Part shown: piece after piece, positions 912-3,361 of the stretch
Numbering within the stretch: the stretch's first letter is position 1
Layout: every line of letters starts with the position of its first letter
DNA from: Lithacetigena sp037446255 [NCBI: Coprothermobacterota bacterium]
GTDB lineage: Bacteria > Coprothermobacterota > HKB111
Length of the DNA: 17,460 nt
Reading direction: 5' to 3'
Assembly: GCA_037446255.1 (NCBI GenBank)
Contig: JBBIIY010000017.1
Coordinates: 1 to 17,460 of the forward strand
The notes under the pieces: model-generated
Database searches by the model: none
What the model saw: the letters and a program-made list of their open reading frames with translations, nothing else
What the model was told of the DNA's origin: nothing
Translations under genes and position numbers: made by a program

Positions 912-1002
912 AAAAGGGGGACAGGCTGGTTTTTTGTAAAATTGTAAAATGAGTACAAGTCTAAAACTCCAGGATTATTTAAAAAAATAGCCTGTCCCTT
1001 TT
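912..1002. repeat. Palindromic element with GGGACAGGCT / AGCCTGTCCC arms
   Basis: The left arm (912-927) is AAAAGGGGGACAGGCT. The right arm (989-1002) is AGCCTGTCCCTTTT, its reverse complement apart from two extra G in the left arm. The pairing can continue inward through a T-run at 930-935 and an A-run at 981-987. The interior is non-coding and includes an 8-bp tandem duplication, TGTAAAAT twice, at 935-950. The GGGGACAGGCT motif resembles the palindromic ends I associate with Y1/IS200-like and REP-type elements, but that link is from memory. The element lies between the patatin gene and the tRNA promoter. It could also fold in RNA and act as a terminator for the patatin gene. No clear target-site duplication is visible. 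Confidence 0.6.
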
Positions 1003-1048: not shown

Positions 1049-1078
1049 TTGACACAAATTTCCAGATTAGTGTATACT
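1049..1078 (+). promoter_or_regulatory. Strong sigma-70/sigma-A promoter for tRNA-Val and the thrS unit
   Basis: The -35 box is a perfect TTGACA at 1049-1054. An 18-bp spacer leads to the -10 box TATACT at 1073-1078, preceded by TG at 1071-1072. Transcription should start near 1084-1086, only a few bases before the tRNA. It is the only convincing promoter before thrS. Confidence 0.8.
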
Positions 1079-1087
1079 TTGGGCAAT

Positions 1088-1162
1088 GGGCGGTTAGTTT
1101 AGTGGTAGAACGCTACTTTGACACGGTAGAGGTCGATGGTTCGATTCCATCACTGCCCACCA
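1088..1162 (+). tRNA. tRNA-Val (anticodon GAC)
   Basis: A full cloverleaf can be drawn. The acceptor stem GGGCGGT pairs with ACTGCCC (one G-U), followed by discriminator A and an encoded CCA at 1160-1162. The D arm is GTTT/GAAC around AGTGGTA. The anticodon stem CTACT/GGTAG closes the loop TTGACAC, giving anticodon GAC at 1120-1122. The T arm is GATGG/CCATC around TTCGATT. A GAC anticodon reads the valine codon GUC, and discriminator A73 agrees with valine identity. The gene sits directly behind a strong promoter and only 16 bases before the first T-box stem, so its 3' end must be processed from a longer transcript. Confidence 0.95.
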
Positions 1163-1178
1163 TAAATTGACCCTATGA

Positions 1179-1414
1179 AGGGAAAAGTACCCTGTTTTTT
1201 CCTGGAAAGAGAAAGGAGACCCTGGCTGAAAGTCTCCTTAAGGACAGCAGAGGGAACACCATCCCTGAGGGAGGTCTGAGAAAGAGGAAGATCCTCATAA
1301 AGACCGTGCCTCTCCTCACCAAATAGGAGAATACAAGAGGGTTCTATAAAATAGAACCAATAGAGGTGGAACCGCGGGATAAACTCTCGTCCTCACAAGA
1401 TAGAGAGTTTTTTT
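1179..1414 (+). promoter_or_regulatory. T-box riboswitch leader, threonine-specific, controlling thrS
   Basis: This leader senses uncharged tRNA-Thr and switches transcription read-through. The base of Stem I is AGGGA (1179-1183) paired with TCCCT (1262-1266). The specifier loop has AAAGTA on its 5' side (AGTA box) and AACACCA on its 3' side, placing the threonine codon ACC at 1258-1260 followed by a purine. The upper stem is CCCT/AGGG, with a distal hairpin AAGGAGAC/GTCTCCTT (1213-1239). Further stems are GGTCT/AGACC with GAGGA/TCCTC inside (1273-1305) and GGTTCTA/TAGAACC (1340-1358, Stem III). The T-box is at 1363-1376. The antiterminator pairs GAGG with CCTC (1391-1394) and GCG with CGT (1388-1390). 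Its bulge TGGAACC would pair with a tRNA ending UCCA, which suits tRNA-Thr with discriminator U. Confidence 0.95.
1381..1414 (+). terminator. Regulated intrinsic terminator of the thrS T-box
   Basis: AAACTCTC (1381-1388) pairs with GAGAGTTT (1403-1410) and is followed by a T tract (TTTTTTT to 1414, then GTTTTT). Its 5' half shares bases 1388-1394 with the antiterminator, so the two folds are mutually exclusive. That is the expected T-box switch: terminator formed when tRNA-Thr is charged, antiterminator when it is uncharged. Confidence 0.9.
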
Positions 1415-1435
1415 GTTTTTAAAAGGAGGTTGTTG

Positions 1436-3361
1436 ATGAAAGTAAAACTAATTGATTTAAACAAAGTTGTGGAAGTTGACAACAACAAAACCGTTTTGGA
1501 TATTTACTCTGCCCATGGTAAAGACCTACTTCCCGATGCCCTTTTATCTCTTATAAACAGCGAACTGAAAGACCTTTCAGCCAGACCAGGCGAGGGTGAT
1601 ACCATATCTCTCGTTTACGCTGGTAAGGAAGCTCTAGAACCCCTAAGACACTCGGTATCACACATTATGGCTCAAGCAGTAAGAAGGTTATTTCCTGAAA
1701 GTCAATACGCTATCGGTCCAGCCATTGAAGATGGTTTCTATTACGATTTTCATTTACCCCGCCCTCTTGCCCCAGAGGACTTACCGGTTATTAGCGAGGA
1801 GATGGATAAAATTGTTAAAGAAGATTTACCGATAGTTGCAGAAACAGTTTCCAAAGATGTGGCAATGAATCTTTTCGCTTCTTCAGGACAAAATTATAAA
1901 GTAGAACTTATAACTGATATAGAAGATGAGTGGGTAACCTTGTATCGGCAGGGTGAATATGTTGACCTTTGTCGCGGACCCCATATGTCATCAACCGGGA
2001 AAAGCGGTTCTTTTCAATTAATGGGCATAGCCGGAGCCTACTTCAAGGGTGACGAAAAAAGGCCTATGCTCCAGAGAATCTATGGAACCGCTTTTTTTAC
2101 CAGAGAAGAGCTGGATAGTTTCCTTAAACAAAGAGAAGAGGCCTTGAAACGAGACCACCGAAAGTTAGGTAAAGAGCTTGAACTTTTCAGTATTGAAGAC
2201 GAAATAGGATCAGGTCTGGTTTTATGGCATCCCAAAGGAGCTATGGTCAGGAAAATAATTGAAGACTTCTGGCGAGACGAGCACCTGAAAAGAGGGTACA
2301 GTTTCGTATTTTCACCCCATATAGGAAGGGAAAGTCTCTGGCAAACCAGCGGACATCTCTCCTTTTATAGTGAATATATGTACTCGCCCATGGAAGTGGA
2401 TGAACAAAAATACCTGATTAAACCGATGAACTGCCCCTTTGCCATGGTGGCTTATAAAAGTAAAACCAGGAGCTACAAAGATTTACCTCTTCGCTGGGCA
2501 GAATTGGGCACTGTGTATCGTAACGAAAGGTCCGGGGTTCTTCACGGACTTCTCAGGGTAAGAGGTTTTACCCAGGATGATGCTCATATCTTTTGCCGTC
2601 CCGACCAACTTAAAGACGAGATAAAAAACACCATTGAACTGGCTCAATATATGCTGGAAACTTTCGGTTTTCATGAATATTCTATTGAGTTTAGCGTTCG
2701 CGATTTAGATAATAAATCCAAATATGTGGGTCAAGAAAAAGCCTGGGAAATTGCTGGAATTGCCATAGAGCAATCATTGGAGGAATTAGGGTTAAATTAT
2801 AAAGTTATGGAGGGCGAAGCTAAGTTTTATGGACCTGCTATTGATATAAAAATCAAAGATGCCATAGGAAGACTCTGGCAATGCACCACCATACAGGTTG
2901 ATTTCAATCTTCCCCAAAGGTTTAACATTACCTATATGGGACCTGATGGCAAAGAATATGAACCGGTAATGGTCCACCGAGCAATTTTGGGAAGTTTTGA
3001 AAGGTTCTTTGGTACTTTGATTGAGCATTATAGCGGCGCTTTCCCCCTCTGGCTCTCCCCGGTGCAGGTAAAAATTCTTCCTGTTAAACCTGATATCTGT
3101 GAATACGCGGAAAATATATTCAGGGAATTGAAGAAAAATAAAATCAGGGTGGAAGTTGATAACCGCGAGGAAGCCCTTTCGGCTAAAATAAAAACCGCTC
3201 AGCACGAGCAGGTTCCCTATATGTTAATACTGGGTAAACGAGAGCAAGAAGCTGGGCTTATATCGGTAAGGGAAAGAAGAAGGGGTGATTTAGGGGCTAT
3301 GGATTTGTTAAAATTTATAGAATTAATTAAAGATGAATTACCCTCTTTCTTGAAGGAATGA
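1436..3361 (+). CDS. thrS: Threonine--tRNA ligase (ThrRS)
   Basis: A 641-residue cytoplasmic class II synthetase that charges tRNA-Thr. I chose ATG 1436 over the in-frame TTG codons at 1430 and 1433 because GGAGG at 1425-1429 sits 6 bases before it. The order of domains is the full bacterial set: N-terminal TGS domain (about 1-60), editing domain with the HxxxH metal motif (H72, H76) and CRGPH near residue 180, class II catalytic core, and C-terminal anticodon-binding domain (about 540-641). The catalytic zinc ligands are in place: C333 in MNCP, H384 in DDAHIF and H514 in MVHRA, within three residues of the E. coli positions. Both catalysis and Ser-tRNA editing should be intact. The T-box leader just upstream makes expression respond to uncharged tRNA-Thr. 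Confidence 0.97.
   Translation: MKVKLIDLNKVVEVDNNKTVLDIYSAHGKDLLPDALLSLINSELKDLSARPGEGDTISLVYAGKEALEPLRHSVSHIMAQAVRRLFPESQYAIGPAIEDGFYYDFHLPRPLAPEDLPVISEEMDKIVKEDLPIVAETVSKDVAMNLFASSGQNYKVELITDIEDEWVTLYRQGEYVDLCRGPHMSSTGKSGSFQLMGIAGAYFKGDEKRPMLQRIYGTAFFTREELDSFLKQREEALKRDHRKLGKELELFSIEDEIGSGLVLWHPKGAMVRKIIEDFWRDEHLKRGYSFVFSPHIGRESLWQTSGHLSFYSEYMYSPMEVDEQKYLIKPMNCPFAMVAYKSKTRSYKDLPLRWAELGTVYRNERSGVLHGLLRVRGFTQDDAHIFCRPDQLKDEIKNTIELAQYMLETFGFHEYSIEFSVRDLDNKSKYVGQEKAWEIAGIAIEQSLEELGLNYKVMEGEAKFYGPAIDIKIKDAIGRLWQCTTIQVDFNLPQRFNITYMGPDGKEYEPVMVHRAILGSFERFFGTLIEHYSGAFPLWLSPVQVKILPVKPDICEYAENIFRELKKNKIRVEVDNREEALSAKIKTAQHEQVPYMLILGKREQEAGLISVRERRRGDLGAMDLLKFIELIKDELPSFLKE

What the first reader, a model, noticed from the sequence alone, without database searches (positions are those of the whole stretch)
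1049..1436. tRNA-Val gene fused in one transcript to a threonine T-box riboswitch
The tRNA CCA end (1162) and the first base of T-box Stem I (1179) are 16 bases apart, too close for a separate promoter. The only good promoter (TTGACA-18-TATACT) lies before the tRNA. The riboswitch 5' end would then be made by tRNA 3' processing, so valine-tRNA output and ThrRS expression would share a promoter while the T-box itself reads tRNA-Thr (specifier ACC). Tying a tRNA gene to a T-box for a different amino acid is unusual as far as I know. Alternatively, processing might be coupled to T-box folding.
Basis: partly seen in the sequence, partly recalled or inferred. Interest (0 to 1): 0.65.

Follow-up and report, generated by a model that had tools for sequence, protein, structure and literature searches.

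The report
Valine tRNA ahead of threonine T-box
A valine tRNA gene, a threonine-sensing RNA switch and the threonyl-tRNA synthetase gene appear to share one promoter; the tRNA–synthetase pairing itself is old and common, while squeezing the switch directly behind the tRNA looks rare but recurs in another bacterial phylum.

Summary
tRNA-Val(GAC) is at 1088-1162 (CCA encoded), a T-box leader (RF00230, 95.2 bits) at 1166-1397, and thrS from 1436. The only strong promoter, TTGACA-18-TATACT (1049-1078), lies before the tRNA. Stem I starts near 1169, so the linker is about 6 nt, not 16. Specifier ACC and UGGA fit tRNA-Thr(GGU), U73.

The Val-Thr tie is not new: tRNA-Val(GAC) lies within about 500 nt upstream of thrS in 37 of 104 loci (window included) from many phyla, nearly all without a T-box core string. 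What is unusual is the T-box directly behind the tRNA. I found six further cases without a promoter between (gaps 2-39 nt), all in or around Chloroflexota. Four separated cases with intact tRNA have their own T-box promoter; a fifth has one behind a broken tRNA.

Best reading: one transcript from the tRNA promoter; every transcript yields tRNA-Val, and the T-box admits RNA polymerase to thrS only when uncharged tRNA-Thr accumulates. Co-transcription is inferred from sequence; nothing was measured. Whether tRNA 3' processing makes the leader's 5' end is open, since CCA is encoded, which represses most RNase Z enzymes tested. Minimum-energy folds show no tRNA/T-box coupling in the window.

The parts
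1049..1078 (+). promoter of the unit: TTGACA (1049-1054), 18 nt, TATACT (1073-1078); expected start about 1084-1087, 1-4 nt before the tRNA
   Evidence: start position inferred
1088..1162 (+). tRNA-Val, anticodon GAC (1120-1122), discriminator A73, CCA encoded (1160-1162)
1163..1168 (+). linker between tRNA CCA end and base of T-box Stem I; no room for a promoter or terminator
1166..1397 (+). T-box leader (RF00230); Stem I about 1169-1276
   Evidence: 95.2 bits; Stem I limits read from sequence
1258..1260 (+). specifier codon ACC (Thr) in the Stem I specifier loop GAA-C-ACC-A
   Evidence: alignment
1365..1376 (+). T-box sequence GGTGGAACCGCG; UGGA (1367-1370) fits the U73-CCA end of tRNA-Thr
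1381..1414 (+). intrinsic terminator: AAACTCTC-GTC (1381-1391) with GAT-A-GAGAGTTT (1399-1410), 7-nt loop, one bulged A, then T run; overlaps the antiterminator 3' strand
   Evidence: minimum-energy fold; positions; not listed by the simple scan
1422..1430 (+). ribosome binding site AAAGGAGGT
1436..3361 (+). thrS, threonyl-tRNA synthetase

Best explanation
tRNA-Val(GAC), the threonine T-box and thrS form one transcription unit driven by the tRNA promoter at 1049-1078. RNA polymerase starts just before the tRNA, makes it in every round, then makes the T-box leader. With charged tRNA-Thr the terminator at 1381-1414 forms and only tRNA plus leader is made. With uncharged tRNA-Thr(GGU), bound through specifier ACC and UGGA, the antiterminator forms and thrS is transcribed. 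So tRNA-Val output is constitutive with respect to threonine, and the T-box acts as a gate that lets a strong tRNA promoter serve thrS without over-making ThrRS. The tRNA is cut out by RNase P at 5' and by tRNA 3' processing, leaving the leader with a processed 5' end. Shown from sequence: the elements, their order, the missing second promoter, recurrence elsewhere. Inferred: co-transcription, gating, processing.
For: Elements and spacing. The tRNA-side promoter scores 14.6 bits, reached by 0 of 300 shuffles; the best site in tRNA plus linker scores 9.0. The same layout without a promoter between occurs in L143 (the genome of L009), L144, L145, L146, L147 and L154: Rfam gaps 11, 39, 39, 38, 2 and 15 nt, with promoters of 12.4-15.0 bits before the tRNA and at most 8.7 between. 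Four separated loci with intact tRNA (L151, same genome as L047; L152; L153; L194) have a strong hairpin after the tRNA and a promoter of 14.3, 15.8, 15.8 and 16.1 bits before the T-box. tRNA-Thr(GGU) has U73 in 6 of 6 genes found (8 genomes searched, 6 with a match). The terminator forms in the minimum-energy fold. tRNA-Val/thrS adjacency in 37 of 104 loci, window included, shows a long-standing neighbour pair.
Against: No transcript data. No whole genome is held for the window and the nearest ThrRS relatives found are only about 56-61% identical, so no close relative tests conservation of this very junction. Other sigma factors or a weak promoter inside the tRNA cannot be excluded: the anticodon loop reads TTGACA, a perfect -35, with TCGATT 17 nt on (9.0 bits; 19 of 300 shuffles as good; in the six other joined loci 3 to 9 of 300). 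Three joined loci (L144-L146) keep a strong hairpin in the gap with 2, 0 and 3 T in the next 8 bases; the separated ones have 5, 5, 3 and 4, so the terminator contrast is modest and some of those hairpins could still stop polymerase. Adjacency could be a passing state, since separated versions exist in related lineages.
Confidence: 0.73

Rival explanations
1. The T-box/thrS unit has its own start inside the tRNA gene, using the anticodon-loop TTGACA as -35 and the T-loop as a poor -10, so tRNA and thrS are transcribed separately and merely abut.
For: TTGACA at the anticodon loop of tRNA-Val(GAC) in the window and the loci printed; best internal site TTGACA-17-TCGATT, 9.0 bits. In the other joined loci the site TTGACA-17-TCAAGT (8.7 bits) is reached by only 3 to 9 of 300 shuffles.
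Against: The -10 matches consensus at 3 of 6 positions; the score is 5.6 bits below the upstream promoter; in the window 19 of 300 shuffles do as well. The same letters also sit in L151, a separated locus that carries a real promoter further down (letters; promoter).
Confidence: 0.1
2. The pair is a co-transcribed but functionally neutral relic: an ancestral tRNA-Val/thrS neighbourhood in which a spacer, terminator and promoter were lost, with no advantage in sharing the promoter.
For: Widespread tRNA-Val/thrS adjacency without a T-box core string; both joined and split forms in the Chloroflexota-centred orders.
Against: Six further joined loci, five of them in one order where all 6 readable loci keep the tRNA (one broken) before the T-box; the one with the broken tRNA has a promoter-like site in front of the T-box (11.8 bits, 2 of 300 shuffles), as if the shared promoter mattered. 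That locus may be an assembly fault.
Confidence: 0.35
3. tRNA 3' maturation is coupled to the T-box: the tRNA needs the leader fold, or the leader needs release from the tRNA, to work.
For: Only about 6 nt separate them; L147 has a 2-nt and L143 an 11-nt gap. Ensemble folding is not free of contact: expected cross pairs are 6.4 in the window and 10.2 in L154, and the joint centroid of the window pairs parts of tRNA and leader.
Against: Joint minimum energy equals the sum of the parts in the window, L144 and L154 (coupling 0.0), and differs by 0.5 to 2.2 kcal/mol in L143, L146 and L147; L145 is the exception with -4.0 and 26.5 expected cross pairs. Gap length and sequence are not conserved. tRNA-Val has A73 and anticodon GAC and does not fit UGGA or ACC, so it is not its own ligand.
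Confidence: 0.08

Closest known systems
thrS T-box leaders (RF00230; thrS T-box regulation reported in at least 29 of 34 Firmicutes, PMC2494555, passage)
   Same: Stem I with specifier ACC, UGGA T-box bulge, antiterminator/terminator, downstream thrS
   Different: here the leader does not begin at its own promoter but about 6 nt behind a tRNA gene for another amino acid
tRNA-Val(GAC)/thrS gene pair of many phyla (seen here)
   Same: tRNA-Val(GAC) on the same strand just upstream of thrS
   Different: nearly all show no T-box core string between; the window has a full T-box
[quoted passage not shown] E. coli tufB operon, recalled)
   Same: a tRNA and a protein gene in one transcription unit
   Different: in the two S. 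agalactiae cases the tRNA follows the protein genes; here it leads, and a tRNA-sensing attenuator lies between
tRNA-Val - T-box - thrS loci of two Chloroflexota-centred orders (L143-L147, with an extra transporter-like ORF read in L009/L143, and L154)
   Same: same order, no promoter between tRNA and T-box, same specifier
   Different: no encoded CCA on the tRNA; in L143-L147 thrS lies more than 1.2 kb after the tRNA; L144-L146 have a strong hairpin in the gap

Membership tests
T-box leader (RF00230) | covariance-model match at or above the curated threshold | tested here: met
   95.2 bits against 93, full length 1-219
T-box leader (RF00230) | specifier codon matching the regulated gene's amino acid | tested here: met
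   ACC (Thr) at 1258-1260 before thrS
T-box leader (RF00230) | UGGN bulge complementary to discriminator of the ligand tRNA | tested here: inconclusive
   UGGA present; U73 in 6 of 6 tRNA-Thr(GGU) of other genomes; the window's own tRNA-Thr is not available
T-box leader (RF00230) | mutually exclusive antiterminator and terminator | tested here: met
   terminator in minimum-energy fold, antiterminator in Rfam alignment; both use the bases from about 1381 to 1394
T-box leader (RF00230) | response to uncharged tRNA-Thr | not testable with these tools
   needs in vitro transcription or reporter assay
tRNA-mRNA operon (tRNA co-transcribed with a protein gene) | no promoter or terminator between tRNA and the next element | tested here: met
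   6-nt linker, no site of 9 of 12, at most 9.0 bits; the T-box terminator is the only stop signal seen
tRNA-mRNA operon (tRNA co-transcribed with a protein gene) | joint transcript observed | not testable with these tools
   no RNA data
tRNA-Val(GAC)/thrS gene pair | tRNA-Val(GAC) same strand, within about 500 nt upstream of thrS | tested here: met
   274 nt in window; 37 of 104 loci including it

The most novel reading that the evidence does not exclude
A recurrent genetic device: a T-box placed directly behind a tRNA gene works as a gated tap on a strong, growth-rate-controlled tRNA promoter. tRNA-Val is delivered unconditionally, ThrRS only on threonine starvation, and tRNA maturation trims the riboswitch 5' end. 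The device arose or was kept in at least two lineages (the window's unplaced lineage and Chloroflexota).
Probability: 0.45. Interest if true: 0.5.

Novelty: new variant of a known kind. Interest (0 to 1): 0.38.

Why it matters
It shows how a T-box can sit inside an existing tRNA/synthetase neighbourhood and borrow the tRNA promoter, so that one promoter serves an always-on product and a starvation-gated one. Joined and split versions in related genomes give a ready comparison for asking when a riboswitch needs its own promoter. It also warns that 5'-end mapping of T-box leaders could mistake tRNA-processing ends for promoters.

Tried and rejected
Placing the window: no whole genome is held. 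A ThrRS tree with the 80 loci gave a long unplaced branch and no starred set holding the window. The best ThrRS matches were 57% identical in the search centred on L001's genome and 53-61% in the one centred on L003's genome. I therefore do not name the organism.

First broad pattern for 'any tRNA then AGTA' (249 genomes, 111 with a match, list cut) was useless: the listed matches, read by eye, were mostly tandem tRNA genes whose 5' parts contain AGTA. A stricter pattern for any CCA-ending tRNA then a classical Stem I start gave 0 of 398 genomes. A tRNA-Val pattern gave 0 of 398 and, in a slightly different form, 1 of 400 in the Chloroflexota-centred search. These patterns are narrow: they require AGTA and a short gap, and by their letters would miss L144-L147. 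They undercount and are not frequencies.

Considered and rejected: tRNA-Val as the T-box's own ligand (anticodon GAC and A73 do not fit ACC and UGGA); the T-box as an artefact (Rfam gathering score passed); chance adjacency (recurs in 6 other loci).

Literature: the listings (57 papers, 20 listed; open-licence PubMed Central papers only) showed no paper that, from title, abstract start or the passages I opened, describes a tRNA gene directly upstream of a T-box or the tRNA-Val/thrS pair. Most listed papers were not opened (for example PMC12452182 on contiguous riboswitches and PMC5670726). One search was for RNase Z. I saw passages only of PMC2494555, PMC7778990, PMC7583486, PMC7479834, PMC7160887, PMC4448216, PMC4342826, PMC10941002 and PMC7438776. 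Subscription papers were not searched, so absence from print is not shown.

Changed on re-checking: the terminator stem is bulged with a 7-nt loop, not a 14-nt loop; the ensemble fold figures that speak for coupling were added and that rival raised from 0.07 to 0.08; the UGGA test was set to inconclusive because the window's own tRNA-Thr was not seen; L194's promoter and the gap hairpins were scored.
Full report
What is there. Window 1049-1436 holds, in order: a promoter TTGACA-18-TATACT (1049-1078), tRNA-Val with anticodon GAC and encoded CCA (1088-1162), a six-base linker, a T-box leader (Rfam RF00230, 1166-1397, 95.2 bits against a gathering score of 93), a terminator with a T run (1381-1414), a ribosome binding site (1422-1430) and thrS from ATG 1436. 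One number changes: the base of Stem I (GACC 1169-1172 with GGUC 1273-1276) starts about 10 bases earlier than stated, so only about 6 nt separate CCA and Stem I.

Specificity of the leader. The specifier loop reads GAA-C-ACC-A (ACC at 1258-1260) and the bulge reads UGGA (1367-1370). The ligand should thus be tRNA-Thr(GGU) with U73. I could not get the window's own tRNA-Thr. In other genomes all 6 tRNA-Thr(GGU) genes found have U73 (8 genomes searched, 6 with a match; letters). tRNA-Val here has A73 and anticodon GAC and fits neither site.

Promoters. The consensus scan lists no site of 9 of 12 or better on the + strand between the upstream promoter and 1476. With a weight-based score (weights recalled), the upstream promoter gets 14.6 bits, reached by 0 of 300 shuffles. 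The best site in tRNA plus linker gets 9.0 bits (19 of 300 shuffles as good). That site uses the anticodon loop, which in tRNA-Val(GAC) reads TTGACA, a perfect -35 box, with a poor -10. It is the only sequence-based rival start I found.

The Val-Thr tie is old. A search centred on L001's genome (titled Actinomycetes; 119 genomes, 110 with ThrRS at the set threshold) gave 30 more loci. For the count I left out L081 and L082 (second copies of L001 and L002) and L083-L113 (not fetched through ThrRS), which leaves L001-L080, L114-L142 and the window, 110 in all; 6 had too little upstream DNA. tRNA-Val(GAC) lies within 500 nt upstream of thrS on the same strand in 37 of the remaining 104, window included. 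Record titles among them include Nitrospirae, Deltaproteobacteria, Nitrospinae, Omnitrophota, Caldiserica, Thioalkalivibrio, Ardenticatenales and Anaerolineales (Chloroflexota), Actinomycetota and Acidobacteria. The thrS start was estimated from the alignment, so some close cases (for example L018 and L078) fell outside the filter. Some loci may come from closely related genomes; I did not thin them. Among the 37, only the window shows a T-box core string in the stretch searched; L047, also among the 37, has one just outside it. The core string is a short pattern and could miss odd T-boxes. L009 has its tRNA and T-box further upstream because another ORF lies before thrS. So the tRNA-Val/thrS neighbourhood is ancient or recurrent and mostly without a recognisable T-box.

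The T-box-behind-tRNA layout recurs. In the order of L009's genome (9 genomes, 8 with ThrRS at the threshold, 6 with enough upstream DNA: L143-L148) all 6 have a T-box match by Rfam (L147 and L148 below the gathering score) and a tRNA-Val in front of it. Five tRNAs are intact. The sixth (L148) is not called by ARAGORN because its 5' half is unrecognisable, which may be decay or an assembly fault. The five intact loci have gaps of 11, 39, 39, 38 and 2 nt from tRNA to T-box model start and no promoter between. L148 has TTGCTT-17-TATAAT between the tRNA remnant and the T-box (11.8 bits, 2 of 300 shuffles as good). In the order of L047's genome (56 genomes, 42 with ThrRS, the best 30 loci examined), 28 of 30 have a T-box core string upstream (one of the two without, L161, has almost no upstream DNA) and 4 of 30 have tRNA-Val upstream. 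L154 is joined (15 nt, no promoter between). L151 (same genome as L047), L152 and L153 are split, with a TTGACA-16-TATACT or TATAAT promoter before the T-box. In the search centred on L003's genome (titled Bacillota; 299 genomes, 20 with ThrRS at a strict threshold, 20 loci), 18 of 20 have a T-box core string and one (L194) has tRNA-Gly-Cys-Val upstream, then a hairpin and, 533 nt after the tRNA, a T-box (88.1 bits, below the gathering score) with its own TTGACA-18-TATAAT promoter. In the search centred on L001's genome, 11 of 30 loci have tRNA-Val(GAC) upstream in the stretch held and none of those 11 has a T-box core string. Specifier ACC and TGGA are readable in the 11 loci L143-L148, L151-L154 and L194; the others were not read for this.

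Hairpins behind the tRNA. The split loci have strong hairpins right after the tRNA with 5, 5, 3 and 4 T in the next 8 bases (L151, L152, L153, L194). Joined loci L144-L146 also have strong hairpins, with 2, 0 and 3 T; L143 and L154 have none worth the name, and the one scored in L147 is part of the T-box itself by position. The contrast is in the expected direction but modest.

Reading. Joined loci (gap 39 nt or less) lack a second promoter in 7 of 7 (window and six others; L009 and L143 are one genome), and the split ones have one in 5 of 5 (L148 with its broken tRNA included). This is what one expects if the joined T-boxes are served by the tRNA promoter. I infer a single transcript in which tRNA-Val is always made and thrS is gated by the T-box: a gate on a tRNA promoter. 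That the sharing is useful rather than neutral is not shown; I give the neutral-relic reading 0.35, and it overlaps with co-transcription.

Processing. In the window CCA is encoded. CC or CCA after the discriminator represses B. subtilis and other RNase Z enzymes, while Thermotoga maritima RNase Z cuts just after CCA (PMC7479834, passages). In L143-L147 and L154 CCA is not encoded on tRNA-Val, so an ordinary RNase Z cut there is straightforward. T-box decisions are co-transcriptional (PMC5951919, abstract start in the listing) and would not need this cut. Minimum-energy folding of tRNA and leader is independent in the window (joint equals sum). The ensemble is less clean: 6.4 expected cross pairs in the window, 0.7 to 10.2 in five other joined loci, and 26.5 with -4.0 kcal/mol in L145; the joint centroid of the window also mixes the two. 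Such folds ignore tRNA modification and co-transcriptional order.

Frequency. Strict patterns gave 1 of 400 genomes in the search centred on the L009 genome, 0 of 398 for tRNA-Val and 0 of 398 for any CCA-ending tRNA, the latter two centred on L067's genome (titled Thermosediminibacterales). These miss known variants, so they say 'rare', not how rare.

Novelty. The parts are ordinary. The joined order tRNA-Val / Thr T-box is a new variant of a known kind so far as the searched open literature shows (listings, most papers not opened). Interest is moderate: a neat, testable operon design, not a new mechanism.

Noticed in passing
window 918-998: Inverted repeat with 25-nt arms (80% complementary; GGGACAGGCT ... 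AGCCTGTCCC) followed by a T-rich run, about 50 nt before the tRNA promoter; may end the patatin-like gene or be a small mobile-element remnant.
   Followed up: partly
window 1118-1123: The anticodon loop of tRNA-Val(GAC) reads TTGACA, identical to the consensus -35 hexamer, in the window and in the other tRNA-Val(GAC) genes whose letters were printed.
   Followed up: partly
L144, L145, L146, gap between tRNA-Val and T-box: A strong hairpin of differing sequence with a T-poor tail sits between tRNA and T-box; perhaps a decayed terminator or a processing aid.
   Followed up: partly
L148 oriented 1-200: tRNA-Val 5' half is unrecognisable while the 3' half looks intact, and a promoter-like site lies before the T-box; decay or assembly fault.
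   Followed up: partly
L009 2136-3038: A transporter-like ORF (my reading: DMT family; no family search was run) lies between the threonine T-box and thrS, so it may be under T-box control.
   Followed up: no
L008, L011, L015, L065, L078, L115, L116, L133, L136, L194: tRNA clusters ending in Val(GAC), such as Gly-Cys-Val or Cys-Leu-Val, precede thrS at various distances (over 3 kb in L008), suggesting an old tRNA/thrS gene cluster.
   Followed up: no
L146 (G928:C15:37077-38819): thrS match contains one TAA stop; sequencing error or damage, not examined.
   Followed up: no
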